Assembly: GCA_029204225.1 (NCBI GenBank)
Contig: CM055112.1
Span: forward strand, 501,001-565,000
Direction: 5' to 3'
From: Diphasiastrum complanatum
Taxonomy: Eukaryota; Streptophyta; Lycopodiopsida; Lycopodiales; Lycopodiaceae
Length of the DNA stretch: 64,000 nt
Made by a program: the position numbers and the translations under genes. Positions 1,144-64,000 of the stretch are shown here, one piece after another. Position 1 is the first letter of the stretch, and each line of letters starts with the position of its first letter. The notes below the pieces were generated by a model. That model was given only the letters and a program-made list of their open reading frames with translations, was not told where the DNA came from and made no database searches.

Positions 1144-2060
1144 TTGGGTGAAAGGCTGCTGCAAGAGTACGCATGTGACATGATGGCAAAGATGGTGCAA
1201 AATAACATGAACTACTACTACAATAATCAGCACAACTTTCGTAGAGAAACTTGTAGCGATATTGCTGATGTTGGGGGAGCTCATTCCTCTAGCGACATAG
1301 GAATGCGAGTAGTGCTTCCATCTTCATACATCGGTTCACCGCGTCATATGCATCATCAATACCAAGATGCTTTGGTCGTCGTTAGGGATTTGGGTTCTCC
1401 CAATCTGTTTATCATGATGACGATGAACCCAAATTGGTCGGAGTTGAGGAGAGAGTTGCAAAACCAGCAGATAGCTGTAGACAGGCCTGATTTGGTATCG
1501 AGGGTTTTTAGCATGAAGCTACAGCATTTGATTGACTTACTGAAGAACGATGGTATTTTTGGGCGCATTATAGGGAGGCTGCATGTCGTGGAATTCCTTA
1601 AGAAGGATTGTCTCACGGCCACCTTTTGATTATATTGGAGGAGCGGAGCAAACCCTTCACGGTTGGAGATTACGATCGTATTGTGTGTGCAGAGATTTCT
1701 GTGAATGAGGAAGATCCAAAATTGTATGAGATAGTGATGAGATCTATGATGCATGGTCCATGCAGAGCATCCTTTCTAAATGCCCAGTGCATGAAGGACA
1801 AAAAATGCTCGAAGAACTATCCAAAGAATTTTATTGATGAAACATCAATGGTGAAGGGATATGTTTTATATAGGCGGAGGGATAACGGAGTGACGGTGCA
1901 TTCACATGGAGTAGAGTTAGATAACATGTGGGTTGTACCGTACAACAGGTGATTGGCACTACATTTTCAGTGCCACTTGAACGTGGAGGTATGTGCACAT
2001 ATACGTAGTGTGAAGTATTTGTACAAGTACTTGTACAAAGGACTTGATATGATTACGGCG
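1144..2060 (+). pseudogene. Helitron Rep (HUH nuclease) domain, frameshifted
   Basis: Residues of the first frame (1144-1629) match Helitron_like_N: GMRVVLPSSYIGSPRHMHHQ, then LFIMMTMNPNWSELRREL and DRPDLVSRVFSMKLQHLIDLL. The HUH metal-binding motif survives as H-G-H at 1614-1622 but lies in a different frame from the upstream part, so a frameshift just before 1610 separates them. The continuation (1608-1952) includes DYDRIVCAEI and CMKDKKCSKNYPKNF. The two-tyrosine motif reads KYLYKYLYKG at about 2013-2042. Known chemistry of the family is single-strand nicking and ligation in rolling-circle transposition. This copy is dead. Confidence 0.82.
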
Positions 2061-4779: not shown

Positions 4780-7030
4780 CTTTCGAGATATTTTTGGAGA
4801 CTTCAATTTTTGGAGTCACAAAATTTTTGAGACTCGAAACTCGAATTTTTGGAGACTTTAATGTTTTGAGTCTCGAAGTTTTTGAGACACGAAATTTTTG
4901 AGACTCGAAACTCGAATTTTTGGAATTTTCAAATTTTTGAAACACAATTTGTGGAAAGACGAATTTTTGGAGACTTCAGACGCGGATTTTTGGAGGCATT
5001 TTCGAAGACTTCAATTTTTTGAGACACAAAATTTTCAAGACTTGAAACTCGAATTTTTGGAGATTTCAACTTTTGGAGTCTCGAAATTTTTGAGACTCGA
5101 AACTCAAATTTTTGGAGTCTCCGAATTTTCGGAACTCAAATTTTGGAGACTCCATTTGTGGAGAGACGAATTTTTGGAGACTCAAGACACGAATTTTTGG
5201 AGATATTTTTGAGGTACATTTCGAGGTACATTTTGTGGAGACTTCAATTTTTGAGACACAAAATTTTCGAGACTCAATTTGTGAAGAGTCTAATTTTTGG
5301 ATACTTCAATTTTCGAGAACGAAATTTTCAAGACTTGAAACTCGAATTTTTGGAGATTTCTATTTTTGGAGTCTCGAAAATTTTAAGACTCGAAACTCGA
5401 AATTTTCTAGACTCGAATTTTTGAGGTATTTTTGGAGACTCGAAACTCAAATTTTTGGAGACACGAAATTTTAGAAAATCAAGACACGAATTTTTGAGGC
5501 ATTTTCGGAGACTTCAATTTTCGAGACACGAAATTTTTGAGACTCGAAACACAAATTTTTGGAGATTTCAATTTTTGGAATCTCGAAATTTTCGAGACTC
5601 GAAACTCAAATTTTCGGAGATTTCAATTTTTTGAGTTTCGAAATTTTTGAGACTCAAAACTCAAATTCGAATTTTTGAGGTATTTTTGGAGACTTCAACT
5701 TTTGGAGACACGAAATTTTTGAGACTCGAAACTCGAATTTTTGGAGACTTCAATGTTGAGTCTTGAAATTTTTGAAACACGTTTAGAGACTTGAAACTTG
5801 AATTTTTGGAGGCTCCAAACTTTCGAGACACAATTTGTGGAGAGACAAAATTTTAGAAAATCAAAACACGAATTTTTGGCATTTTCGGAGACTTCAATTT
5901 TTGAGACACGAAATTTTCAAGATTCGAAACTCAAATTGTTGGAGATTTCAATTTTTGGAGTCTCGAAATTTTTGAGACTTGAGACTCGAAACTCAAATTT
6001 TTCTAGACTCGAAACTCGAATTTATTCGAGACTCAATTTTTTACAACTCTAAATTGTCAAAACTCAATTTGTGGAGAGACGAATTTTTGGAGACTCAAGA
6101 CATGAATTTTTGAGACACGAAACTCGAATTTTTGGAGATTTCAATTTTTGGAGTCTCGAATTTTTGGAGACGCGAATAATCCGAGACTCGAAACTTGAAT
6201 TTTTGGAGATTTTGATTTTTGGAGACTCTAAATTTTCGAGACACAATTTGTGAAGAGACAAATTTTTGGAGACTCAAGACACGAATTTTTGGAGGTATTT
6301 CGAGGTATTTTTGGAGACTTAAATTTTCGAGACACGAAATTCGAATTTAACTAAACCTTCACGAAAATGTCACGAAATTTTTCTCAAGGCTTCACGAGAT
6401 TTTCGGATTTTGGAGACACAAAATTTTCGAGACACGAAATTTTCGATACTCGAAACTCGAATATTTGGAGACACGAAATTTTTGTCATTCAAGACTCGAA
6501 TTTTTGATGACATGAATCTTTTGAGACTCGGAACTCAAATTTTTTGAGACTTCAATTTTTGGAGACACAAAAATTTCGAGACATAAATTGTTGGAGATTT
6601 CAATTTTTGGAGTCTCACAATTTTGGAGACTCGAATTTTTGGAGATACAAAATTTTCGAGACTTAAAATTCGAATTTTGAGAGTCTCCAAATTTTCGGGA
6701 CTCAATTTTTGGAGACTCAATATTTTCGAAGTACATCTCGAGGGTCAGTGTCAATTTGTGTAAAGACGAATTTTTAGAGACTCAAGACACGAATTTTTGG
6801 AGGTATTTTTGAGGTACATTTTGAGGTATTTTCAAGGTACGAGGTACTTTCAAGGTATTTTTTGAGGTGCATTTCGAGATTTTTTGAGGTATTTTGATGT
6901 ACTTTTCGAGGTATTTTTGAAGTACTTTTGAGGTATTTCAAGGTACTTTCGAGGTACTTTTGAGAGTTAGTGTCTCAATTTGTGGAGAGACAAATTTTTG
7001 GAGACTCAAGACACGAATTTTTGGAGGTAT
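4780..7030. repeat. ~2.3-kb degenerate AT-rich satellite (TCGAA / TTTTTGGAGA words)
   Basis: The whole stretch is built from a few short words in shifting order: GAGACTCGAAACTCGAA, TTTTTGGAGA, TTTCAATTTTTGGAG, TCTCGAAATTTT and GACACGAATTTTTGGAG. In places (for example 5538-5640) a higher-order period of about 55 bp is visible. Several words are inverses of each other (TCGAAATTTT against AAAATTTCGA), so single strands could fold extensively. Open frames in it simply reflect the repeat (FLETR, IFGD peptides) and are not genes. I recognise no named family. Confidence 0.85.
6795..6975. repeat. GAGGTA(C/T)TTT decamer array
   Basis: Within the satellite, the repeat changes to short tandem units of about 10 bp reading GAGGTAYTTTT or AAGGTACTTTC, roughly 15 copies with small indels. 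On both sides the longer TCGAA/TTTTTGGAGA repeat resumes, so this is an internal sub-array rather than a separate locus. Confidence 0.7.
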
Positions 7031-7059
7031 TTTTGAGATACATTTTGAGGTATTTTTTC

Positions 7060-7600
7060 GAGGGTCAGTGTCGCATTCTTCGAGGGCCTCCCCCTCCAAA
7101 AAATATTTTTGAGTTATTTCGCGAAGGCATCGGAATATCGTAAAATTTTTGAGAAGCCTTCAGTGATTTTTGCGAAACCTTTAGAGAAATTTCGCGAAAT
7201 TTTCGCGACACTGTTCCTCCTCCTCAAGTGTCGCATTTTTTTCGAGGGTCAATGTCACGAACATAACTAAAGCCTTCGCAAAAATTTCGTGAAAATCCCC
7301 TAAAGGCTTTGCGAGGATTTGCCAATTTTTTTTGAATTTTTTGCGAGATTTTCGAGGCCTTTTTGCGTTTCGAGATATTTCGCGAAAGCTTCAGTGATTT
7401 TTGCGAGATTTTCGTGAAACTTTCAGGAAAATTGCGCGATTTTTTTGCGACATTGGCCCTCCCCCTCCAGAAAAATGCGACACTCCCCCTCCCCCTCCCC
7501 CTCCCAAAAATTACCTTCTCCTCTCAAAAAATACCCCCCCCCCTCCCAAACAATGCGATACGTCGGCTGGCACACTTCGGCCACGTACACACATATATCT
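7060..7600. repeat. Low-complexity region with TTCGCGAAA words and C-rich tracts
   Basis: The satellite passes into sequence with recurring TTTCGCGAAA/TTTTTGCGAGATTTTCG words, twice followed by CGAGGGTCAGTGTCGCA-like phrases. C-rich runs follow (CCCTCCCCCTCC at 7455-7507 and a C9 run near 7543). Frames through it encode proline-rich or glycine/glutamate-rich low-complexity peptides and are not credible genes. Confidence 0.55.
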
Positions 7601-52437: not shown

Positions 52438-52833
52438 TCACACTGGAATGCCTCTACTAGAGTATGCATCTAATAGATGTGCATTATCCTTATTTCCACT
52501 AAGTTCAACATAAGTAGAGTACAATGAATAATGGGAGCTCCTTAAAGGAACATTCCCATCAGTAAAACCTAGAATGTTCAAAACATAAGATCTTTTGACG
52601 AAAATGATTTTATTTGTCTTAACAAATTTATGTCCTCCTAGATAAAATGATAAAGCTTTAACTGCCATTATCAGACTCTCCCCAACTGGGCTCAGCTTCG
52701 AATGAGCAATACAGATCTCATTCTCCAGAAAATGCCTTAGATAGTGGCCAAGTCCCCTATCCCTCTGGAACGAGGATGCATGTTATCTGTTACCACCTCA
52801 TCTCACAGCAAAGTCATCAATTATGAGAGCATC
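52438..52833 (-). pseudogene. Left divergent gene, 3' exon, unknown function
   Basis: Acceptor TTCTTATTGCAG precedes 52833 on the minus strand. The frame encodes DALIIDDFAVR, then two in-frame stops (TGA near 52801, TAA near 52786). After them RDRGLGHYLRHFLENEICIA, HSKLSPVGESLIMAVKALSF, YLGGHKFVKTNKIIFVKRSY and VLNILGFTDGNVPLRSSHYS follow, ending GIPV-stop at 52438. It continues in phase from the exon at 52910-53216. I recognise no family. Both stops are one C-to-T change from CGA and CAA. Confidence 0.5.
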
Positions 52834-52909
52834 CTGCAATAAGAAATATGTTAAGAAAAATACATTCAGCAGTTAAAACATTCTAATGCAAGGAAGTTTA
52901 AACACTTAC

Positions 52910-53216
52910 ACATTCTTCATCATCAGCAGCAACCAGATCAAGATGATCAATATTATGACCACCTACTGAAGTGGAATCATCTGTGAAATGCATTGATGAT
53001 GGACGAGGGAAGCCCATCTGGGATTGAAATGCTGTGAATTCTTCATCGGATGGTCTGCCTCATCCATCCTCAGCAATATTTGATAAAGTCTTAGTCAAGC
53101 ACTCTTCACCCGTCATAAGTCCCTCCTCATCATCATAATCAATTCCAGCAACAAGGTCATCTATTTCAAAATCTACAAAGTTGGAGAATTCAGAAACTGT
53201 GCCGGATAATAAACAT
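52910..53216 (-). pseudogene. Left divergent gene, middle acidic exon
   Basis: The exon encodes an acidic stretch: FVDFEIDDLVAGIDYDDEEG, LMTGEECLTKTLSNIAEDG, then an in-frame TGA near 53061, then GRPSDEEFTAFQSQMGFPRP and HNIDHLDLVAADDEEC. The donor GTAAGTG lies at 52909-52903 (minus strand). The 5' boundary is uncertain: an acceptor CCGGCACAG at 53197 would fit, but the join to the upstream exon in phase was not resolved. Acidic character suggests a regulatory or chromatin-binding segment, but that is speculation. Confidence 0.45.
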
Positions 53217-53244
53217 AGCACCTCACTTCACGATAGTAAAAAAA

Positions 53245-53912
53245 CTAACATAAATCAGCTGTAGTAAAATATACATCATCATTTATATAATATAATGGCA
53301 AATTGAAAAGACATTTAGACTCCTCTATAGGGATCGATTCATCGACAAATGTATTCTGGCCAATAAAAGAATCCCAGAGCACATCAGTATTTACATCAAT
53401 AAAGTCACTATCCTTATTAGGGGTGTCGATTAGGAAGTGACTGATATCCTTAATAGATAACTGAACAGAGGATAATGCAAGATGAGAGTCAGCAGCAGAA
53501 ACTTCCTCATCATCCGGGATTTGAACTAGCACAAAAAGTACGAAACCACTCTGGTATTCAACCAATCGACATTTTTTGTTGCAATAAGGACACATTGAAT
53601 TGCTTTTAAAAAGATCAAACAATTTGGTGAACATTCTATCTAGTCTATGTCTGAAAGTTGGAAAGAAACGAACAAAATCAGTATAATGCATGTACGAGAG
53701 TGAACCTATGGGGATAACAAGCTTACTGAGTACATCCCTGAATCTAACATAATGTTCATAAAATACGTCAGAATTGGGTTGTGCAATCTTAAAAGCATGT
53801 AAATATGGCCTAAATAGGCTGAGGAAGTAGTCTAGATTTTCATTAATCCCAAATTTAGTGAAAAATGAACTTAGGCCCGAATCTCGTGTAGATTGAGGAA
53901 GAGGCCATGGCA
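53245..53912 (-). CDS. Left divergent gene, 5' exon, unknown function with CPYCNKK motif
   Basis: An open frame on the minus strand spans 54009-53245, but its first 30 codons overlap a repeated promoter-like motif. I place the likely start at the ATG near 53910 (MASSSIYTRFGPK, in a neighbouring frame, so a one-base shift may exist). The main frame reads FFTKFGINENLDYFLSLFRP, SDVFYEHYVRFRDVLSKLVI, FVRFFPTFRHRLDRMFTKLF and SNSMCPYCNKKCRLVEYQSG, then an acidic end. The paired cysteines hint at a zinc-binding element. I recognise no family. It diverges from the CENH3-like gene across element H. Confidence 0.45.
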
Positions 53913-53914
53913 CT

Positions 53915-54085
53915 ACGACAGATATCGCACCTGTGCGTGAGGGAGACAAAACGAAACAAAAGTAACTGTAAAGATCGCGCACAAGAGGGATATGTACGAC
54001 AGCTAGCATCTGAGTATCGCACTTGTGCGCAGGTAGGGATCGAGGAATAAAATGTACAACAAAGCGCGTGCAAAAGAGCGATATG
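53915..54085. promoter_or_regulatory. Left array of alternating TATCGCACTTGTGCG-like motifs
   Basis: Four motif copies about 40-52 bp apart alternate in orientation: GATATCGCACCTGTGCG (53923), inverted CGCGCACAAGAGGGATAT (about 53974), GTATCGCACTTGTGCGC (54013) and inverted GCGTGCAAAAGAGCGATAT (about 54063). CGCACTTGTGCG is itself a near-palindrome. The array ends a few bases before the candidate ATG of the minus-strand gene. The same motif recurs on the right of element H (60363-60625). Confidence 0.6.
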
Positions 54086-54139
54086 TTGTGAATTTCGAAA
54101 AAAAAGGCAAAAAATTTAATCGGGTTTCATGCCTTTGAT

Positions 54140-54256
54140 AGTGAATTTTCACACGTGTGGCCAATGGTCAATAAACATGTGTTCATTTTCGATTGGTTTG
54201 CAGGCATTGGCACGTGTGAGGTGACACCTGAACACGTGTGAAATGACACAAGGACA
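54140..54256. promoter_or_regulatory. CACGTGTG palindromes left of element H
   Basis: CACACGTGTGG (54151), GCACGTGTGAGG (54209) and ACACGTGTGAAATGACAC (54233) contain the G-box core CACGTG. The cluster is continued at 60121-60305, so before the insertion of element H it was one region. G-boxes bind plant bZIP and bHLH factors in known promoters; the role here is inferred. Confidence 0.55.
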
Positions 54257-54909
54257 TGTGAAAAATTGTCAACTAGTAGTATTTTCCTAACTTGAGATTT
54301 TGTAGGCCTATGGCCAAATAAAAGTTAGAGATAGGTTCATACATGTATGTAGAGGCCCAAAGTATGTGTACACTACTTTTGAGGTCACATTAATTAGAGG
54401 AGGTCGAGTGTGGAGCTCTTCTATTGGCTCATAATTTGGTGCATTCCTATTTGACCAAATTTCTAGGTAGATGGGTGAATCCTATTGGACCCCAATTTTA
54501 GCCTATCATAAGACAAGTGGCCAAGAGGCACTATGGCTGCTATAAATAGCCATCTCCACGAGTATGTACACATCTCATTTTCATTCTATTGAATGAATGT
54601 TATGCTCTTTGAAGATCCATCTTCTTCTCTCTCACTTTTTTGTTCATATCTTGCATTCTAGCCACTAGAATTGTGATTTCTTTGTTGCTATGGCTTCACA
54701 CGTGTGAAATGCAGGTTGTAGGCTCTGAAGTACGGACAGGGACAGCAAGTTTCTGTTTGTGGAAGCTTATGATCAGATCTTGATGTTTAGTTGATGTTTA
54801 GTATGCTTAACATCACAATTTCTATCATTTTTTCAATCTAGATGTGCATAACTTCCATGGCCAAGATCTTTATGAAACTTTAGCATCTTTTGGATCTGAG
54901 TTTTTCACA
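54257..54909 (+). repeat. Element H 5' LTR
   Basis: 653 bp, TG...CA ends. A TATAAATA box at 54541-54548 should direct transcription, with the leader running into the primer-binding site at 54910. ACACGTGTGAAATGCAG near 54698 is another CACGTG-containing word. Confidence 0.95.
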
Positions 54910-54927
54910 TGGTATCAGAGCATTAGG
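54910..54927 (+). other. Element H primer-binding site
   Basis: TGGTATCAGAGCATTAGG directly follows the LTR. It is complementary to the 3' end of plant initiator methionine tRNA, the usual primer for reverse transcription. Confidence 0.93.
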
Positions 54928-55518
54928 CGGCCAAATGTGCAGGTTTTGCCAGATTTAGAAGAGATTTGTGGGCGAGTTTGCTTTTGTAGCATTCCAATCA
55001 AGTTTCTAGCTAAAAATCTTGTTGATTTATGTGTAGAAATTGGATCTTTGTGATCAAAACATCATTTGTATGCATTTCAATTGAAGTAGGGCGAATTCCC
55101 TCTGTACTTATCAGAATAAGGAGACAAAATTTGTTTTGGAAAGAGGGAGATGCAAGATCCAACAAGATCCTATTAGTTTTCCATTCTAGCATATAGTTTT
55201 TTGATTCAATTTCTTGCTTCTTCATGTCAAAAACTTCAAAATTGATGTAACCCTCTGATTTTCAGTTTGCTGAATGATTCAAGAGTGTATTTCAATCTTA
55301 GGAGTGAGGGAAAAGCAAGTATATTGAGGTTTGGTCTTGGTTTGATCAAGAAATCATAAAACTAGTGGCTAAAATTGAGGAAAAAGTGAGGAAAAGAGAG
55401 AAAAAGTAAGGTTTTAGGTTCCAAATCTTTGTGATTTCTTCTTGTGTTTCATTTGTTGATTCAAGAGAGTGCTTAGTGCATTGGAACAGGTCAAAGATCA
55501 GAGATCAATCATTGCAAC

Positions 55519-58500
55519 ATGGCTACAAATGGAGGCTACATGTTGGAAAGCAATGATAGGCTTACCTCCCTCAACTATTCTACTTGGAAAGTAAGGATGG
55601 AGTCTTTGCTTGAGATGAATGAGTTGATGGATATTGTTGTAGGTGTGGAGGAGAGACCTTTGGCACCTCAAGAACAATTGAGGTATGACAAGAGGGCAAA
55701 GAAAGCCCTTCACATGATCAAGATGAATGTGACAAATGAGCTTATCAAAGAGGTTGGTAAGTGCACATCATCTAGTGAAGCTTGGGAAGCCTTGAAGAAG
55801 GTTTATGAATCCAAGTCTACTTCTAGAGTGTTGACTTTAAGAAGGCAAATCTTTTCTTGTATGCAAAAGAAGAGTGAGAGTGGACATGCTTTTGTTTTGA
55901 GAGTTAAAGCATTGAATGATGAGTTAGCATGCATTAATGATGGCATAAATAATGAGGAGCTTGTTCAAGTGATTCTCAATGGCTTGTTGGATGATCATGC
56001 TAATCTTGTTCAAAGTTATGCTATCCAAAAATGTTTACCAAGTGTTGGAGACTTGCAAGAGGTCTTGTTGGCTGAAGAATTCAGGTTGCAAGCAAGAGTG
56101 GGAGCATCTTCTACATCTCAAGGAGGAGAAGAGGAGGCAATGTTCTCTAAAGGCAAGTTCAAGGGCAAAGGTAAAAGCAATTGGTCTAAAGGGCAAGACC
56201 AAGGTGAGCACTCTACTTTTGGCAAAAAGAAGGATAGATCTAAGCTAAAATGTTTCTATTGTGGAGTCAAAGGGCATTTTGCTAGTGATTGTTTCAAGAA
56301 AAAGAGGGATCAAGGGGAAAAGCAAACCAATCTAACTATTGATGAGGGTGGGGATGAGCTTCTTTCAAATGATGCTTTTGTTATGTCATCTTGCTTGTTG
56401 GCTAATCATGGAGACATTGATCCTTGGTGGATTGATAGTGGAGCCACTTCTCATATGACATATCATAAAGAGTATTTTTCATCTTTAATGGCATTTGATG
56501 GTGATAGGAAGGTAATCTATACCGCAAATGATGGTGAGTGTACAATCAAGGGGATTGGCACAATTCCTATTTCACTTTCTACAAATAGGAATATAGAATT
56601 GAAAGATGTTTTGCTCATTCCATCCATTACCAAGAACTTACTTAGTGTAAGCCAAATGCTTGACAAAGGATTCAAAGTTGAGTTTGATGGTGATGCTTGC
56701 TTGATCAAAAAGGGGTGTAGTATCATTGCAAAAGGGAAAAGGCAAGGGAAATTGTTCAAGCTTGATGCATGTGTTGTTGCTAACCAAGTTGGATGCATGG
56801 CAAATGAACAAATGTCAATTCAAGAGGTATGGCATAAAAGGATGGGACATCTCAACTACAAGGCCTTGGAGGTAATAGCCAAAAAGGAGGTAGTAAGGGG
56901 ACTTCCCAAGTCTCTTACTTGCTTGAATCATGTTTGTGAAGAATGTGCTTTGTCTAAATCACATAGATTGCCATATACTAGATCTATATCTAGATCTAAG
57001 ATGCCTTTTTCTCTCTTGCATTCGGATATTCATGGTGTTACTACAATTAGCAATGGAGGTGCTAAGATGTATGTAACTTTCATTGATGATTTTAGTAGAT
57101 TTTGTTGGGTTTATCTACTAAAGAGCAAGGATGAGGTGTTTGATGTGTTTGTCAAGTTCAAAGTTGCTATTGAGACTCAATTTACAACCAAAATCAAATG
57201 CTTGAGGAGCGACAATGGTGGTGAATACATTTCTAACAAATTCAAAGCCTTTTGCGATGAGCATGGGATCAAGAGGGAGTACACATGTCCAAGAACACCA
57301 CAACAAAATGGAGTGGCCGAGAGGAAGAATAGAACCTTGTGTGAGAGTGCAAAGGCAATGAGATTGAATGCTAATCTTCCTAAAACTTTTTGGAGTGATG
57401 CTTTGTTGTGTGCAAATTTCCTATGCAATAGATGGCCAAGTGTTGTATTGGAAGGAAAAACCCCTTTTGAAGCTTTGTTTGGTATGAAGCCTAATGTCAA
57501 GTTTCTAAGAACTTTTGGATGCATTTGCTACTTCAACATTACTCTTGATGATAGAACTAAGGAGGATCCATCTTCAAGAAAGGGCATTTTTGTTGGTTAT
57601 AGTGAAGTAAGCAAAGCATATAGGATTTATGTTCCTTCAATCAAGAAAGTGTTCACAAGTAGGGATGTCATTTTTGATGAAAGTAATATTCCAAAAGTTG
57701 TTTCAAGTGATGATGGTGTTGTTGCAACTAATGTGCTTGATGACAATGGAGTTGATGACACATTGGATGTGGATGTTGAAGAAGCCTCTTCAAGTCAAAT
57801 TCCAAGGAGAACTCCAAGGCATAAAGTGAAACCCTCAAGGCTCACTTATGATGGCAAAGGTAAGCAAGTGGTGGATGGATCCAACTATGCTTTCCTAACT
57901 TCTTTTGATGTACCTTCATGTGTAGATGAAGCAAGGCAAAAAGAGGAATGGATCCAAGCAATGGATCTTGAGTTTGAAGCACTTATGAAGAACAACACAT
58001 GGAGATTGGTGGAGCTTCCAAAGGGCAAAAGTGCAATTGGATGCAAATGGATCTTCAAGGTAAAGACAAATCAAGATGGATCTATCAACAAGTTGAAGGC
58101 AAGGTTGGTGGCTAAAGGTTATGCTCAAGAGCATGGCATTGACTATGAGGAAACCTTTGCACCCGTGGCAAAGATGGTGAGCATAAGAGTAATCATTTCC
58201 CTTGCAACTCTTTATGGATGGGATCTTTGGCAATTAGACATTTCTAATGCTTTCTTGAATGGTGATCTTGAAGAGGAAGTCTACATGGAGCAACCCGAGA
58301 GCTATGTTTCTCATAGCAAGCCTAATCATGTGTGTTTTCTACAAAAAAGTTTGTATGGTCTTAAGCAAGCACCAAGGAGTTGGTATGCTAGGCTTAACTC
58401 TTTTCTACTTTCTCAAAACTTCACTATGAGTGAGTATGATCATTCACTTTACTTTAGAATTAGTGCTAATGATGTTACAATCCTTCTAATTTATGTGGAT

Positions 58501-59469
58501 GACATTATTTTAAGTGGAGGGAACAAGGAAGATATAGAAGATATCAAGAAAGCACTAAAAAAGGAATTTGAAGTGCATGATCTTGGTCTTTTGAGCTATA
58601 TCTTAGGAATAGAAGTAATTAGAACTTCTCAAATCACTTTTATTTCACAAGAGAAGTATGCTATTTCTATTCTCAATAGATTTCATATGGTAGATGCAAA
58701 TCCTATTGATACACCTATGGAATCACATGTAAAGCTAACTATAAGAGGTAATGAAAGATCCTTCGAGGACATTACTCTCTATAGGAAGCTAATAGGTTCT
58801 CTTATATATCTAACCATCACAAGACCTGATTTATCTTATTGTGTTGGTAGATTAAGCCAATTCATGCAAGATCCTAGCATAGAACATTGGAAACTAGGAA
58901 AGAGGATCTTGAGATACATCTCGGGAACAAAAGATTTTGGCATTGTTTATAGAGGATCATCACCTAACTTATTTGGTTTTTCAGATTCAGATTTTGCAGG
59001 AGACCTTATGGATAGAAAATCCATAAATGCACATGCTATTTTCATAGGTGATGGAGCTATCTCATGGATGTCGAAGAAACAAGCAACTATATCACTTTCT
59101 TCTAGTGAGGCCGAGTACAAAGCTTTGACATCATGCACAAAGGAGATGGTGTGGATCAAGAGGATGATTATGGAGCTTCACTTGCTGGATTTTTCAGAGA
59201 GTCCAATCATCTTTTGTGACAACCTTTCAGCCCAAAGTCTAGCAAGCAATCCGGTTTTCCATGCAAGGAGCAAACATATCGAGGTGGCTTACCATTTTGT
59301 GAGAGAACAAGTGTTGGCAAAAGAGATCAAGCTTGAACATGTCCCATCAAAGGAATGTGTGGCTGATATCTTTACCAAAGCATTGGGAAAGGACTTATTT
59401 TTCAAGCATAGAACAAGTCTTGGTGTACTTTCTAAATCTATGCTAAAACTAGTTGAAGAGGGAGTGTGA
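55519..59469 (+). CDS. Element H gag-pol polyprotein (1316 aa), intact
   Basis: ATG at 55519 is the first in the leader-proximal frame and gives MATNGGYMLESNDRLTSLNY. Domains in order: gag (1-240), zinc knuckle CFYCGVKGHFASDC (about 244-257), protease WWIDSGATSHM (Asp near 307), integrase zinc region WHKRMGHLNYK (from about 437) and DDE core ([32 protein letters not shown]; about 520-600), RT (from about 811) with IYVDDIILSG near 993, then RNase H with FSDSDFAGD and SLSSSEAEYKAL. All catalytic motifs are present and there is no stop or frameshift. The polyprotein is cleaved by its own protease in cytoplasmic particles. The last codons (LKLVEEGV) overlap the polypurine tract and the first LTR bases. 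Confidence 0.97.
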   Translation: MATNGGYMLESNDRLTSLNYSTWKVRMESLLEMNELMDIVVGVEERPLAPQEQLRYDKRAKKALHMIKMNVTNELIKEVGKCTSSSEAWEALKKVYESKSTSRVLTLRRQIFSCMQKKSESGHAFVLRVKALNDELACINDGINNEELVQVILNGLLDDHANLVQSYAIQKCLPSVGDLQEVLLAEEFRLQARVGASSTSQGGEEEAMFSKGKFKGKGKSNWSKGQDQGEHSTFGKKKDRSKLKCFYCGVKGHFASDCFKKKRDQGEKQTNLTIDEGGDELLSNDAFVMSSCLLANHGDIDPWWIDSGATSHMTYHKEYFSSLMAFDGDRKVIYTANDGECTIKGIGTIPISLSTNRNIELKDVLLIPSITKNLLSVSQMLDKGFKVEFDGDACLIKKGCSIIAKGKRQGKLFKLDACVVANQVGCMANEQMSIQEVWHKRMGHLNYKALEVIAKKEVVRGLPKSLTCLNHVCEECALSKSHRLPYTRSISRSKMPFSLLHSDIHGVTTISNGGAKMYVTFIDDFSRFCWVYLLKSKDEVFDVFVKFKVAIETQFTTKIKCLRSDNGGEYISNKFKAFCDEHGIKREYTCPRTPQQNGVAERKNRTLCESAKAMRLNANLPKTFWSDALLCANFLCNRWPSVVLEGKTPFEALFGMKPNVKFLRTFGCICYFNITLDDRTKEDPSSRKGIFVGYSEVSKAYRIYVPSIKKVFTSRDVIFDESNIPKVVSSDDGVVATNVLDDNGVDDTLDVDVEEASSSQIPRRTPRHKVKPSRLTYDGKGKQVVDGSNYAFLTSFDVPSCVDEARQKEEWIQAMDLEFEALMKNNTWRLVELPKGKSAIGCKWIFKVKTNQDGSINKLKARLVAKGYAQEHGIDYEETFAPVAKMVSIRVIISLATLYGWDLWQLDISNAFLNGDLEEEVYMEQPESYVSHSKPNHVCFLQKSLYGLKQAPRSWYARLNSFLLSQNFTMSEYDHSLYFRISANDVTILLIYVDDIILSGGNKEDIEDIKKALKKEFEVHDLGLLSYILGIEVIRTSQITFISQEKYAISILNRFHMVDANPIDTPMESHVKLTIRGNERSFEDITLYRKLIGSLIYLTITRPDLSYCVGRLSQFMQDPSIEHWKLGKRILRYISGTKDFGIVYRGSSPNLFGFSDSDFAGDLMDRKSINAHAIFIGDGAISWMSKKQATISLSSSEAEYKALTSCTKEMVWIKRMIMELHLLDFSESPIIFCDNLSAQSLASNPVFHARSKHIEVAYHFVREQVLAKEIKLEHVPSKECVADIFTKALGKDLFFKHRTSLGVLSKSMLKLVEEGV

Positions 59470-60117
59470 AAAATTGTCAACTAGTAGTATTTTCCTAACT
59501 TGAGATTTTGTAGGCCTATGGCCAAATAAAAGTTAGAGATAGGTTCATACATGTATGTAGAGGCCCAAAGTATGTGTACACTACTTTTGAGGTCACATTA
59601 ATTAGAGGAGGTCGAGTGTGGAGCTCTTCTATTGGCTCATAATTTGGTGCATTCCTATTTGACCAAATTTCTAGGTAGATGGGTGAATCCTATTGGACCC
59701 CAATTTTAGCCTATCATAAGACAAGTGGCCAAGAGGCACTATGGCTGCTATAAATAGCCATCTCCACGAGTATGTACACATCTCATTTTCATTCTATTGA
59801 ATGAATGTTATGCTCTTTGAAGATCCATCTTCTTCTCTCTCACTTTTTTGTTCATATCTTGCATTCTAGCCACTAGAATTGTGATTTCTTTGTTGCTATG
59901 GCTTCACACGTGTGAAATGCAGGTTGTAGGCTCTGAAGTACGGACAGGGACAACAAGTTTCTGTTTGTGGAAGCTTATGATCAGATCTTGATGTTTAGTT
60001 GATGTTTAGTATGCTTAACATCACAATTTCTATCATTTTTTCAATCTAGATGTGCATAACTTCCATGGCCAAGATCTTTATGAAACTTTAGCATCTTTTG
60101 GATCTGAGTTTTTCACA
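59465..60117 (+). repeat. Element H 3' LTR
   Basis: 653 bp, same length as the 5' LTR, TATAAATA at 59749-59756. It is followed by GGACA, the target duplication. Confidence 0.95.
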
Positions 60118-60120
60118 GGA

Positions 60121-60320
60121 CACGTGTCTCGTGTTCATTAGTCGGATGGACAACACGTGTTGTTCTCGCATTAAGCCATATAATCCCACATGTGTGAAAT
60201 GACAACCTGACATGTGTCAAATGATCATTCGCTGACTTGTCACCACGTGTCACTTTTTGATGACTTGACAGTTCGCACGTGCGACAAGACGTTCTTTCGC
60301 ACGTGCGAACCGCAATATAA
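60121..60320 (+). promoter_or_regulatory. Cluster of CACGTG palindromes and TATA-like box
   Basis: Within 190 bp occur ACACGTGTC, ACACGTGTTG, CACATGTGTG, GACATGTGTC, CCACGTGTCAC, TTCGCACGTGCGA and TTCGCACGTGCGAA (a perfect 14-bp palindrome near 60296-60309). CAATATAAAATC near 60312 could act as a TATA box. The cluster continues that at 54140-54256 before element H inserted. Interpreted as a shared promoter of two divergent genes. Confidence 0.55.
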
Positions 60321-60362
60321 AATCACAAACTCCGATGAATTTTTTTCACTTTTTTTTTTCCC

Positions 60363-60625
60363 TCCGCATATCGCACTTGTGCACCACTTTCATAATCGAT
60401 ATTCTGCCTACTGCATTTCATGCGCACAGGTCCAATATTTCTGCTTACGTGTCTCCTCATATCGAACTTGTGCACCTCTCTTCTATATTCAACGATCTCT
60501 CTTGTATTGGGCTCGCACAAGTCCGATATATCGTACTTTCTTTTCGTACATATCGCTCCTCTACAAACACTTCAAAATCCTCCCCTTCTTATCCTGGTCG
60601 TCATGCACAAGTGCAATATCCCCCA
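60363..60625. promoter_or_regulatory. Right array of alternating TATCGCACTTGTGC-like motifs
   Basis: Six motif copies, mostly 40-55 bp apart, alternate in orientation: CATATCGCACTTGTGCAC (60367), inverted GCGCACAGGTCCAATAT (60422), CATATCGAACTTGTGCAC (60458), inverted CTCGCACAAGTCCGATAT (60511), weak CATATCGCTCC (60549) and inverted ATGCACAAGTGCAATAT (60603). The last lies 30 bases before the ATG of the CENH3-like frame. The pattern mirrors the left array. Confidence 0.6.
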
Positions 60626-60647
60626 GTATACTTCTACGGATAGGAGC

Positions 60648-61034
60648 ATGCAGACGAGGAGGGATTTCTTCTTTGCTGGCTCATCCTCAGCCCCTACGGT
60701 TGCCATTACACCTCCGGCTAGATCTAGAAGGCGCAACCATTGCAGGTGGCTCTCTGATATTCATAAGTATTAGACATCAACCGCTTTGTTGATTCCCAGA
60801 GCTCCATTCTACTGTGCCGTCCATCACATAACTAGAAATGATCTCGGTCAGCTTGTTAGATTCACACCCTCTGCTCTTCAGTGCCTTCAGGAAGCTGCTA
60901 AGGACTACATGAGCCTTTTTTTTGAAGATTCATTTTTGCTTGCTATTCATTCTAAGAGAGTCACCATTATGCCTAAGGACTTTCAGTTACTGATGAGAAT
61001 GAGGGAGAGATTTTGCAAGTTATACATGTCTTAG
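60648..61034 (+). pseudogene. CENH3-like histone H3 frame with in-frame TAG
   Basis: From ATG 60648 the frame encodes a short Arg/Ser-rich tail, DIHKY, an in-frame TAG (60771-60773, where H3 has Gln), then TSTALLIPRAPFYCAVHHIT, VRFTPSALQCLQEAAKDYMS, LFFEDSFLLAIHSKRVTIMP and KDFQLLMRMRERF, ending TAG at 61032. This is the H3 histone fold: alpha-N, alpha-1, loop 1, alpha-2, HSKRVTIMPKD. LLIP.APF, the T-P-x-A-L stretch and a loop 1 one residue longer than canonical H3 resemble plant centromeric H3, which replaces H3 in centromeric nucleosomes. With the TAG it cannot make a full protein unless read through. It could be a decayed gene or a captured copy. Confidence 0.72.
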
Positions 61035-61625
61035 CCTGCTGCTCCTAGACCTGTTCATCTAGATAGGACTGATCTTCCTACCAAGCGTCCTAGGAAGCAG
61101 ACAGCCCCCAAGAGAGCCCCAAAGAAAGTAAGGAGGGTAGATTCTGCGAAGCCTAACCCAGATGCAAATGTAGATAATGCTGCCCTAGATAAGGTTGTAT
61201 ATATAGCTACATCGAATTTGGAAACTCCTGTAATTCCTATAGATACTACTCATCCACCTCCTTCAGATCTTTATACATATATAGATTCCGATGATTATCT
61301 TAAACTTGAGAAGGACATAGTCAATGCTGTAGATACAATTGGTATTCCATTTTGTTTTAGAATAGAGGAACTTGACTATAGTATAAATTATAGAGTTGTT
61401 GATTGTTTGGATCTCAAAAATAGACGGGCTTCTATCAATGATCTTGTGAGAGTCTGGGATTACACTCTTGCAATATGACATTGCAAGAGATTCATCCAAT
61501 GAATTGCTGGTGCTCAGTAGCTTTTTGTTTCAGGCCTTCAAGGAGAATAACGACACATTGTCACAGTGTCTGACTAGTGGATTCACACCAGCAACAAAAT
61601 ACATGGTCGTGCCTTATCATACCAA
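61035..61625 (+). pseudogene. Basic extension in frame with the CENH3-like region, and following exon
   Basis: The same frame continues after the second TAG: a basic PTKRPRKQTAPKRAPKKVRR stretch, then PPPSDLYTYIDSDDYLKLEK, FCFRIEELDYSINYRVVDCL and RRASINDL, with a TGA at 61476 if not spliced. A GT-AG intron of about 90 bp (CTT|GTGAGA near 61445 to TTTTTGTTTCAG near 61535) would remove the TGA in phase. It joins to AFKENNDTLSQCLTSGFTPA and TKYMVVPYHT, which ends at donor GTAAGA at 61626. The basic run resembles a nuclear-localisation or DNA-binding tail. Whether the histone part and this part form one protein is uncertain. Confidence 0.5.
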
Positions 61626-61732
61626 GTAAGATATGCTAAGTGCTTCTTGTTGTTTAATGCTTTATCATTGGCATTATCAATGGAAATAGTTCTCAGAATT
61701 GCAGCTAATAGACTTTCTATCTTATTTTGCAG

Positions 61733-61919
61733 TGATCACTGGAGTTTAAACCTGATCTCTATTAAGAAATCTGTAGATAATATTGTTAAGAGATTTTGTG
61801 TCAAGATGAACCTGGCTAGCGATACACATCAGAATGTAGATATATACTTGCCATATTTAAGTAAATATTCTCCAACAGATGTTTCCCATTCAGTGGACTG
61901 GCAGATCGTTAGTTTGGAG
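61733..61919 (+). CDS. Exon with DHWSL motif, Ulp1-protease-like (tentative)
   Basis: Acceptor CTTATTTTGCAG and donor GAG|GTAAAT frame an exon that joins upstream in phase and encodes DHWSLNLISIKKSVDNIVKR, then NVDIYLPYLSKYSPTDVSHS and VDWQIVSLE. Preceded by YMVVPYHTN, this resembles the Ulp1/SENP C48 block in which the catalytic His sits in an HW motif after a hydrophobic-P strand. The Cys-containing block (DCG) is not visible downstream, so a working protease is unlikely. Plant transposons of the MULE and CACTA type are known to carry Ulp1-like genes. Confidence 0.4.
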
Positions 61920-62002
61920 GTAAATTTTGTCTTTCTTAACAACATTTTGAATTCTAATGTATTTGTTTCATTCTAATTCATTCTGTTTCTTAATCAAGCC
62001 AG

Positions 62003-62116
62003 GTGTACAAATTTAGACAAGAAATTAACCTAAGCATATTGGCTAGGGCAAGGCTTCAGCCTCCCGTTGTTGATGATGGTGCAAAGGATGATGTAACTAT
62101 ACTAAATAAAGATTAG
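62003..62116 (+). CDS. Last exon of the CENH3-like/Ulp1-like gene
   Basis: Acceptor CTTAATCAAGCCAG precedes VYKFRQEINLSILARARLQP and PVVDDGAKDDVTILNKD, then TAG at 62114-62116. It joins in phase (0) with the exon ending at 61919. It converges with a minus-strand frame that starts just beyond. Confidence 0.45.
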   Translation: MYKFRQEINLSILARARLQPPVVDDGAKDDVTILNKD

Positions 62117-62399
62117 AACAATACAGATAGCATAGAACAAAAATAGATTGCACATGTATATTAGTTCAAAGTCTTGATCCAGTGGTAGCCATGTACCTTC
62201 AATTTTCTTGTATCTCTGATAGCTAAATATGAGACTGAGCATTTGCTTTTCGATATGATAGCGAAAGATCATTGAAGACTTTTTAATCCTGCATTCTATG
62301 TCATTATTTGTTTCACTATCCCAGCCTTGATCCATGAGATCTGACAAAGTCTCATATGATAAATCATTGCAAACAAATAAAGTTGGTGTCCTACGAACA
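62102..62399 (-). CDS. Convergent unknown gene, possible 3' exon
   Basis: The minus strand has an acceptor-like TTTTTTCTTGAGTGCTAG before 62399, then SVRRTPTLFVCNDLSYETLS, DLMDQGWDSETNNDIECRIK and MIFRYHIEKQMLSLIFSYQR, with a hydrophobic end. Its phase with the preceding exon was not resolved. The 3' end overlaps that of the plus-strand gene by about 15 bp. Confidence 0.35.
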
Positions 62400-62431
62400 C
62401 TAGCACTCAAGAAAAAATCAACAAATATATT

Positions 62432-62744
62432 TTATGAGATAAACCAACTTAGGTGAACAATTTTCGAGCCAGTGCTTATCTTCATAGCATTTTTAATATC
62501 AATTAGTAGCTTGCATCTCAAGGATTCAGAAACAATACTGTCAAGATTAGGCCACTCATCACTTTGAAAACTAGACAATGGAATTGCTTCGAGCTTGCCA
62601 AAACCTCCATCTGTTTGTGGTGTATATAAAGATTCATAAAAATAGATACCACAATCTGCAAGTTCCTTTGGACTTCTTCCTCTGTATTGCAACTTTCCAA
62701 CATTAGAGTGAATCACGTCCAATGATTGTGCTGACTCCCATTCA
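62432..62744 (-). CDS. Convergent unknown gene, middle exon
   Basis: It encodes EWESAQSLDVIHSNVGKLQY, RGRSPKELADCGIYFYESLY, FGKLEAIPLSSFQSDEWPNL and KNAMKISTGSKIVHL. Acceptor CATAAG lies at 62745-62750 on the minus strand. It joins in phase 2 to the exon ending at 62873. No family recognised. Confidence 0.42.
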
Positions 62745-62872
62745 CTTATGCACGACGGATATAAATTTGAAAGAAAAAAAAATGTTGAGGCATTTAAATC
62801 ATAATTTGAAGAGCATCAATAAAGAAAATCACCTATGATTGTTGTAGAGTGCATATGTTTTGATATACTTAC

Positions 62873-63182
62873 AATTACATTTTCGATGATCATGAGGATT
62901 GATATCATGTACTTTGATTTCTGAATGCATATATACATGTTGTACTAAAACTTCTGATATCGATTGACCTCTCGAGGTAGTCTTAAACTCCAGAATTTTT
63001 GCTTTCCAATAAGATTTGTATGTCATTTTTGCTCTTTTCTTTTGTCGAAAATTGCCCTTTGATGATGGATACAGCAACACCCATGAATTCTTCATATATT
63101 TTGTTGGCTTCCAGTTATCAACTTCATCTTTCTCATTGTAAAGAATCACAGACTCGACTGTAGATCTGGGTCTCCTTGCCAT
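62873..63182 (-). CDS. Convergent unknown gene, first exon
   Basis: Met at 63182 (MARRPRSTVESVILYNEKDE) starts the likely protein; the frame is open upstream to 63320 but that part looks random. It continues KPTKYMKNSWVLLYPSSKGN, FRQKKRAKMTYKSYWKAKIL, QSISEVLVQHVYMHSEIKVH and HDHRKCNCK, with donor GTAAGTA at 62872. Basic and Cys/His-rich at the end, so nucleic-acid binding is possible. No family recognised and no stops within the exon. Confidence 0.42.
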
Positions 63183-63539
63183 TGCTATTTTCAAAGCTTG
63201 GGCGCCAAAAATCTCTTTGATATGATACTTAATTTCAATTTTTTGTATTACATTTAATCTAATGTGAATGCCACCATAGTCACAATTACTGTGTATACCA
63301 TATTTTAAATAAATGTACATACTGTATTTCTATAATTGTAACTAGTATGGTTAGCAAATTTTATTATACTAACCAGCATAGTGAGTAAATTTAACTTGAG
63401 GTATTGACGTTGGGCAGATTAGCACGTGTCGAGCAGGAAGAAGAAACCAATGGGATAAGTCCATGCTGCTCGGACACAAATTTTAAAGTTTTCTATATTG
63501 TATTTTTATTTCTCAGTTAATTTGAACTACGTTACGTAG

Positions 63540-64000
63540 ATTTCAAATCCGTGCATTTTGATTGGGCATGGTGACGGTCGAAACTAGAGAAAAAAAATAA
63601 AAGTACATTTACAAAAGGTCTTTTTTTATTTTGGAACTCCTCTAATGCTTCTTCTTGTTGCTGATTTGAGTGACTGGTTGTAGCACTATGTGCTTGTTGT
63701 TGGAATTGCTTCTTCTTTTTGTTGTTGTATTTCAAAGTTCGACAGTCCTTGATTTTGTGCAGAAGAGTTTTTGCACTGGTTGGAATGATGAAGAGCTTGA
63801 ATTCGATCCTAAACCGAAATTTGGCCTAGACTGCATGTTGCTCTTCTTGTCAGTATAACCTGACTTTGTAGATCTCTTGGATCTAAACTTCTGATTTTTC
63901 AAATATAGAGCCCGAGGATCTGATCCTGAGCCTAAGGAGGATGCTGATCTTCTAATCTCCTCTTGTAGGAGCAATGAAATTACTCTTGACAGAGTGAGGT
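63540..64000 (-). pseudogene. Copia gag fragment running off the right edge
   Basis: The minus strand from 64000 reads [17 protein letters not shown], close to element C gag ([17 protein letters not shown]), then SASSLGSGSDPRALYLKNQK, a Lys/Ser/Gln-rich linker and, with a frame change near 63735, further Gln/His-rich sequence. The zinc knuckle expected next was not found before 63540. It continues beyond the window. Confidence 0.7.

What the first reader, a model, noticed from the sequence alone, without database searches (positions are those of the whole stretch)
60648..61034. Centromeric-histone-like H3 fold in a transposon-rich locus, with a stop where Gln should be
The frame carries the whole H3 histone fold. 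LLIP.APF, the T-P-x-A-L stretch and a loop 1 one residue longer than canonical H3 are like plant CENH3. The HSKRVTIMPKD block is very well kept, while the rest is strongly diverged. TAG at 60771 replaces the alpha-N glutamine codon. It may be a decaying CENH3 paralog, a captured copy in an unknown transposon, or a fast-evolving H3 variant.
Basis: partly seen in the sequence, partly recalled or inferred. Interest (0 to 1): 0.88.

Follow-up and report, generated by a model that had tools for sequence, protein, structure and literature searches.

The report
Transposon-encoded histone H3 fused to protease
The odd histone in this window is one dead copy of a gene carried by a repeated jumping element in a large plant-like genome, and that gene joins a histone H3-like domain to a SUMO-protease-like domain, which suggests that a transposon keeps its own altered histone to act on its host's chromatin.

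Summary
The H3 fold is real (Pfam Histone E=1.4e-20), and so is the TAG at 60771. It is not a lone CENH3 paralog. The 1.745-Gb host genome holds at least 150 homologues (capped list) and 307 places matching a 32-base piece of the domain, control 0. The gene sits in an 8-9 kb element with 35-bp terminal inverted repeats; 2,378 such ends match within 3 mismatches, control 0. One copy is open over four inferred exons and encodes 479 aa: a tail with one lysine, an H3 fold (E=3.1e-24), a linker and a Ulp1/C48-like domain (E=1.3e-7). Between copies dN/dS is 0.10-0.12 in the H3 fold and 0.58 in the linker. The window copy is decayed: two stops, one frameshift, catalytic exon missing. At the Gln codon 25 of 36 copies have CAG, 6 TAG. 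A second amplified H3-like family shares the genome. Best reading: a transposon chromatin effector, probably anti-silencing; its function is inferred. Transposase class, target-site duplication and expression are unresolved, and the C48 catalytic Asp is missing.

The parts
52452..63647 (+). Remnant of one transposon copy (left part lost; right terminal inverted repeat ends at 63647), interrupted by a Copia insertion
   Evidence: Homology to other fetched copies starts at about 52452 and stops at 63647, where flanks diverge
63613..63647 (-). Right terminal inverted repeat, diverged (6 mismatches in the 23 terminal bases)
   Evidence: family repeat CATTAGAGGAGTTCTCAATATCAAAAAGACCCTTT counted genome-wide
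60648..61031 (+). H3-like tail and histone fold of the element's gene (start of other copies aligns four codons upstream)
   Evidence: Pfam PF00125 E=1.4e-20; copies aligned
60771..60773 (+). In-frame TAG at the alpha-N Gln position; CAG in 25 of 36 copies
61032..61034 (+). Second in-frame TAG, where many copies read Gln
61035..61475 (+). Lys/Pro-rich linker and start of the Ulp1-like part (exon 1, up to a frameshift near 61470)
   Evidence: same region in other copies
61450..61625 (+). End of exon 1 in the shifted frame
61626..61732 (+). Intron 1 (GT-AG, inferred)
   Evidence: read; matching GT-AG intron in copy c3a
61733..61919 (+). Exon 2, with the His motif NDHW of the C48 domain (187 nt, as in c3a)
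61920..62002 (+). Rest of intron 2 running into exon 4; exon 3 (Gln/Cys motif) is missing here
   Evidence: No exon 3 hit in the window copy; exon 3 found in 25 of 36 copies
62003..62116 (+). Exon 4 remnant, ends at a TAG
53248..54009 (-). Gene A of the element (divergent; unknown protein with a CPYC motif); remnants continue to about 52452
   Evidence: open frame; dN/dS 0.41 over 9 copies; no Pfam match above cut-off
62105..63329 (-). Gene B of the element (unknown protein, several exons)
   Evidence: frames; dN/dS 0.27 and 0.35 over 10 copies; no Pfam match
60123..60635 (.). Part of the A/H3 intergenic region with many CAC[GAT]TG-type motifs (rest at 54010-54251)
   Evidence: 11 seen against 1.4 expected, 0 of 300 shuffles as high; motif chosen by eye
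54257..60117 (+). Young Copia retrotransposon inserted into the intergenic region (LTRs 54257-54909 and 59465-60117, 1 mismatch in 653; target duplication GGACA)

Best explanation
The feature is a decayed copy of a gene carried by an amplified DNA transposon with terminal inverted repeats. The gene encodes a histone H3-fold domain fused through a Lys/Pro-rich linker to a Ulp1 (C48) SUMO-protease-like domain. Most likely mechanism: the H3 fold pairs with host H4 and enters or binds chromatin. Its consensus tail has a single Lys, in an H3K4-like context, and none at K9 or K27, so it could not take the usual silencing marks there. It brings the protease-like domain to chromatin, where it removes or binds SUMO and counters host silencing of the element, perhaps at the motif array of the element's own divergent promoter. 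Shown here: the transposon context, the fusion, the copy number, purifying selection on the fold, the tail composition, the motif array. Inferred: splicing, H4 pairing, nucleosome entry, SUMO activity and anti-silencing.
For: 150 scored matches (capped list), at least one on each of contigs C1 to C23. 307 places match a 32-base histone piece, control 0. Terminal repeats: 1,154 forward and 1,224 reverse, control 0. One copy (c3a) reads open for 479 aa over four exons set by GT-AG sites, with Histone E=3.1e-24 and Peptidase_C48 E=1.3e-7, both above Pfam cut-offs. dN/dS in the H3 fold 0.124 (528 pairs, 33 copies) and 0.102 (21 pairs, 7 mostly intact copies), against 0.587 and 0.575 in the linker. 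In the C48 part, where covered, His 22 of 22, Gln 23 of 23, Cys 21 of 24. RF of loop 1, IH.KRVTIMPKD and QL of helix 3 are kept. Motifs CAC[GAT]TG 10-12 in each of four copies against 1.1-1.4 expected. Published parallels, passages read: VANC proteins bind motif arrays in noncoding parts of VANDALs and remove silent marks (PMC10398659); some VANDALs carry a Ulp1 domain (PMC13317346); ULP1d acts on KNL2 and CENH3 loading (PMC12903445).
Against: By the Ulp1 alignment the catalytic Asp position holds Val in 26 of 26 covered copies, so the domain may be inactive. The window copy on its own gives no Pfam C48 match and only weak SENP2 matches (E 0.05). No transposase profile was found in the frames tested. 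The two copies with both ends intact show no target-site duplication. 31 of 36 copies carry a stop or frameshift in exon 1. No transcript data exist here. Copies were picked by protein similarity in the H3 fold, which biases its dN down. Silent divergence of the fold (0.43-0.49) is higher than in the other parts of exon 1 (0.21-0.30), which I cannot explain. Fold models were weak (pLDDT 36 and 58). One of four motif forms was not significant in c1a (29 of 300 shuffles).
Confidence: 0.6

Rival explanations
1. Targeting module: the H3-like fold joins or mimics CENH3 or another H3 chromatin so that the element's machinery is led to particular chromatin for insertion; the Ulp1-like part acts on loading factors such as KNL2.
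For: CENH3-like traits LLIP.APF and a longer loop 1; the tree puts the element proteins beside plant CENH3 (85/94); ULP1d removes SUMO from KNL2 and affects CENH3 loading (PMC12903445, passages).
Against: Matches occur on each of C1 to C23; clustering near centromeres was not tested and centromere positions are unknown. A clade with H3 is not rejected (p-AU 0.072). The second family has an H3-length loop 1.
Confidence: 0.2
2. Passive cargo: the transposon once captured an H3 and a Ulp1 gene and has since copied them without using them.
For: 31 of 36 copies have a stop or frameshift in exon 1; plant transposons capture host genes (PMC13317346, passages).
Against: dN/dS 0.10-0.12 in the fold with dS above 0.4; Ulp1 His, Gln and Cys mostly kept; one open 479-aa copy.
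Confidence: 0.08
3. Decaying paralog of the host's CENH3 or H3, or a multigene host family, unrelated to transposition.
For: Significant H3 match and CENH3-like traits.
Against: Shared terminal repeats at 2,378 places, the same neighbouring genes in other copies, about 50% identity to H3, while 13 host genes are 97-99% identical to H3.
Confidence: 0.03
4. Endogenous DNA virus: the histone, Ulp1-like and unknown genes come from a large virus that integrated and was then copied.
For: Viral histones exist (PMC9145170, passages); the other genes of the element have no Pfam relatives.
Against: An 8-9 kb unit with short inverted repeats, spliced genes and over two thousand ends fits a transposon; a scan of viral contigs with the H3 part confirmed no relative.
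Confidence: 0.04

Closest known systems
VANDAL transposons with VANC and Kaonashi (Ulp1) genes, Arabidopsis
   Same: Plant DNA transposon with a motif-rich noncoding region and, in some, a protein that carries a Ulp1 domain; VANC removes silencing (PMC10398659, PMC13317346, passages read)
   Different: A histone fold in VANC is not known to me (recalled); no MULE transposase was recognised here; inverted repeats are present here, while the Ulp1-bearing group is non-TIR MULEs (PMC13317346)
Plant CENH3
   Different: Hundreds of transposon copies, fused protease-like domain, no RPGT before alpha-N; plant CENH3 is usually single-copy and intron-rich (recalled)
Canonical histone H3
   Same: Fold and the KRVTIMPKD block
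   Different: 48-52% identity; consensus tail with one Lys; C-terminal fusion
Viral histones (bracovirus H4; histones of large DNA viruses)
   Same: A mobile parasite that encodes a histone; bracovirus H4 alters host expression through its tail (PMC5423620, abstract start in search listing; PMC9145170, passages)
   Different: Here a transposon, an H3-like histone and a protease-like fusion
Ulp1/SENP proteases (C48)
   Same: Profile match with His, Gln and Cys mostly kept
   Different: Asp position is Val; joined to a histone

Membership tests
Histone H3 | Histone fold by profile | tested here: met
   PF00125 E=1.4e-20 for the window, 3.1e-24 for copy c3a
Histone H3 | Tail with modifiable Lys at 4, 9, 27, 36 | tested here: not met
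   Consensus tail has one Lys, in a KQT context like K4; none at the aligned K9, K27 or K36
Histone H3 | RPGT before alpha-N | tested here: not met
   Absent in both families aligned
Plant CENH3 | Loop 1 longer than in H3, LLIP.APF | tested here: met
Plant CENH3 | Groups with CENH3 in a tree | tested here: inconclusive
   Beside plant CENH3 85/94 (not starred), TE plus H3 not rejected, p-AU 0.072; host CENH3 not identified
Plant CENH3 | Loads at centromeres | not testable with these tools
   needs localisation
Peptidase C48 (Ulp1) | Catalytic-domain profile | tested here: met
   PF02902 32.1 bits against cut-off 20.7 in copy c3a; the window copy, without exon 3, gives none
Peptidase C48 (Ulp1) | His-Asp-Cys triad with Gln | tested here: not met
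   His 22/22, Gln 23/23, Cys 21/24 covered copies; Asp position Val in 26/26
TIR DNA transposon | Terminal inverted repeats in many copies | tested here: met
   2,378 ends, control 0; both ends in c1a and c3a
TIR DNA transposon | Target-site duplication | tested here: inconclusive
   None in the only 2 of 10 copies with both ends intact; more flanks could not be fetched
TIR DNA transposon | Recognisable transposase | tested here: inconclusive
   Gene C in the left half of c1a looks enzyme-like by eye (KLDE, AGDLK, CLYC), but has no Pfam match above cut-off and no PDB hit
VANDAL/KIU MULE | MULE transposase | tested here: not met
   No MULE or other transposase profile in the c1a gene C pieces given to Pfam

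The most novel reading that the evidence does not exclude
A selfish histone: the transposon encodes its own nucleosomal H3, whose tail cannot be marked for silencing (no K9 or K27), with a tethered SUMO protease or SUMO reader, and uses it to build or poison chromatin over its own motif array. At least two diverged families of amplified H3s share one genome and may record an old arms race.
Probability: 0.3. Interest if true: 0.95.

Novelty: categorically new. Interest (0 to 1): 0.86.

Why it matters
Transposons are silenced in part through marks on histone H3. An element that carries its own H3, with one lysine in the tail and a SUMO-protease-like arm, would be a direct counter-weapon and a new way for a parasite to act on chromatin. 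It would also bear on the origin of histone variants such as CENH3 and on genome growth in this plant lineage. In the rows listed by my literature searches no title or abstract start reported a transposon-encoded histone; several searches listed only part of their hits, and the library holds open-licence papers only.

Tried and rejected
A protein database search for the C-terminal part could not be made (database switched off). Structure prediction of exon 1 alone (pLDDT 36) and of the H3 fold with 19 rows (pLDDT 58) was too weak to use, so I ran no fold search. A scan of viral contigs with the H3 part confirmed no relative. My first gene model took 61920-62002 as a true intron 2; comparison with other copies pointed to a lost exon 3 instead. 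A first C48 test used exons of several copies and was replaced by a single copy. A CENH3 query did not single out the host's CENH3. A sliding comparison of DNA identity showed no marked dip or peak at the H3 fold, so its higher silent divergence stays unexplained. The host's identity was not tested: size and contig number fit Diphasiastrum complanatum as I recall it.

Full report
Observation. The frame at 60648-61034 reads as stated, with TAG at 60771 and again at 61032. Pfam gives Histone at E=1.4e-20 with X at the stop and 3.2e-17 for the part after the stop alone; the best PDB matches are H3-type chains (E from 3.8e-16). The match is real.

Genome context. The window is G000:C21:501001-565000 of a 1.745-Gb assembly of 5,176 contigs. 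Contig C23 has 42.5 Mb and C24 10.9 Mb, which suggests 23 chromosomes. Size and number fit the clubmoss Diphasiastrum complanatum as I recall it; this is an inference, and no tool here named the species. That the genome is a plant's is likewise inferred.

Copy number. A protein search with the H3 part gave 150 scored matches of 5,903 first-look candidates, at 81-100% identity, with at least one on each of C1 to C23 (capped list). A 32-base piece of the histone coding sequence occurs 138 times forward and 169 reverse within 3 mismatches, control 0. Ten regions of 20 kb around copies were fetched. They share a unit whose ends are inverted repeats beginning CATTAGAGGAG: 7 of the 10 and the window show at least one such end within 6 mismatches of 23. 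The 35-base end occurs 1,154 times forward and 1,224 reverse in the genome, control 0. Two of the ten, c1a and c3a, have both ends intact, 9.0 and 8.0 kb apart; neither shows a target-site duplication, so the class of transposon is open.

Genes of the element. In c1a, from left to right: gene C (+), gene A (-), the H3 gene (+) and gene B (-). A, B and C have no Pfam match above its cut-off; gene C has no PDB match. dN/dS is 0.41 and 0.35 for two parts of A, 0.27 and 0.35 for two parts of B, and 0.52, 0.55 and 0.84 for three parts of C (4 to 10 copies each; the last value is weak).

The H3 gene. It has four exons, set by GT-AG sites and homology, not by transcripts. Exon 1 holds the tail, the H3 fold, a Lys/Pro-rich linker and the start of a second domain; exon 2 holds NDHW; exon 3 holds SPQQNDSFSCGW; exon 4 ends the protein. 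Copy c3a is open over all four and encodes 479 aa, though c3a as an element has lost part of gene B. Pfam finds Histone at residues 26-123 (E=3.1e-24) and Peptidase_C48 at 327-437 (E=1.3e-7, 32.1 bits, cut-off 20.7). A query made of exons of several copies gave C48 at 7.3e-10 and PDB Ulp1 chains at 1.6e-4 and 2.9e-4. The window copy alone, without exon 3, gives no C48 match and SENP2 only at E 0.05. Of 36 copies examined, 29 have an exon 2 match and 25 an exon 3 match; where covered, His is kept in 22 of 22, Gln in 23 of 23, Cys in 21 of 24. By the alignment the catalytic Asp position holds Val in 26 of 26. Whether the enzyme works is therefore open.

Selection. Over 33 copies (36 less L014, L015 and L016; some other near-duplicates such as L008/L009 stayed in), dN/dS is 0.124 in the H3 fold (528 pairs), 0.404 in the tail, 0.587 in the linker and 0.311 in the C-terminal part of exon 1. 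In seven mostly intact copies it is 0.102, 0.323, 0.575 and 0.242. The copies were chosen for protein similarity of the fold, which lowers dN there; but silent divergence of the fold is high (0.43-0.49), so choice alone is unlikely to make the contrast. Why silent divergence is lower in the rest of exon 1 (0.21-0.30) is not explained.

Decay. The window copy has two in-frame stops and a frameshift, and lacks exon 3. In exon 1, 31 of 36 copies have at least one stop or frameshift. At the alpha-N Gln, 25 of 36 copies have CAG and 6 TAG. Of 52 stops in exon 1 of the 36 copies, 30 are TAG where the common codon is CAG, and C-to-T plus G-to-A changes number 1,137 of 2,857. This fits loss of methylated cytosines in silenced copies (inference). 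A Copia element with nearly identical LTRs (1 mismatch in 653) and a GGACA duplication landed between genes A and H3.

Sequence traits. The consensus tail is MDRRKQTRRDFFSAGSSSAPAVAITPPARPR.RNRSRW. It keeps K-Q-T-x-R as around H3K4 and SAPA as from H3 S28, but has no Lys at the aligned K9, K27 or K36. RPGT before alpha-N is absent; RF in loop 1 and IH.KRVTIMPKD are kept. The roles of H3 residues are recalled.

Relatives. Five of these were fetched: they are one distinct family with its own tail, FLIP.AP and an H3-length loop 1; Pfam Histone E=3.1e-30 for a majority-like sequence. Whether that family sits in the same kind of element was not tested. In a tree of 23 rows the two families form one clade (96/93) beside plant CENH3 (85/94, not starred); holding them with H3 instead is not rejected (p-AU 0.072). 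Raw identity is slightly higher to H3 (first family 48-52%, second 54-55%) than to plant CENH3 (44-50%, 48-52%). A CENH3 query gave host H3, both families and perhaps further ones, but no clear host CENH3.

Mechanism. Shown: a transposon family carries a gene that fuses an H3 fold to a C48-like domain, and the fold is conserved while copies multiply. Inferred: the protein enters or binds chromatin and counters silencing. The A/H3 intergenic region holds 10-12 CAC[GAT]TG motifs in each of four copies against 1.1-1.4 expected, 0 of 300 shuffles as high (motif chosen by eye after reading the sequence). This recalls VANC, which binds motif arrays in noncoding parts of VANDALs and removes silent marks (PMC10398659, passages), and Ulp1-bearing VANDALs (PMC13317346, passages). 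ULP1d acts on KNL2 and CENH3 loading (PMC12903445, passages), which also supports the rival targeting reading.

Novelty. In the listed rows of searches (20 of 64; 0; 15 of 47; 3 of 3; 10 of 1,901; 6 of 47), no title or abstract start reported a transposon-encoded histone. In the viral-histone review PMC9145170 the two passages found under 'transposon' and 'transposable' name none. Subscription papers and bioRxiv's own holdings are outside the library, so the claim of novelty is limited to these searches.

Noticed in passing
L052-L056; table: A second, distinct amplified H3-like family (KWLQDIRSYQKSVKFLIP.AP...), 54-55% identical to H3 in the two rows compared, with many open frames of 200-400 aa in the table; its carrier element was not examined.
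   Followed up: partly
table: Matches to CENH3 residues 2-93 at about 47-50% identity may be a third H3-like family that keeps more of the region before alpha-N.
   Followed up: no
window 54010-54251 and 60123-60635: Many palindromic CAC[GAT]TG and TCGCAC motifs in the divergent intergenic region of the element.
   Followed up: partly
exon 1 of 36 copies: 30 of 52 in-frame stops are TAG where the common codon is CAG, a CHG site.
   Followed up: yes
window 54257-60117: Young Copia element with an open 1316-aa frame, LTRs differing at 1 of 653 sites and a 5-bp duplication GGACA.
   Followed up: yes
window 4781-7062: Array of diverged direct repeats (about 65-75% alike) with an open reading like FWRLETQIFGD.
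   Followed up: no
window 1144-1629: Helitron_like_N domain, E=1.3e-35.
   Followed up: no
G000: 13 nearly identical full-length H3 matches in single open frames: 9 on C11, 3 on C5, 1 on C23.
   Followed up: no
c1a (L035-L036), left half: Gene C looks enzyme-like by eye (KLDES, HLAGDLKTL, HPCLYC) but matches no Pfam family above cut-off.
   Followed up: partly
exon 1 of the H3 gene: Silent divergence is higher in the H3 fold (0.43-0.49) than in the rest of exon 1 (0.21-0.30); unexplained.
   Followed up: partly
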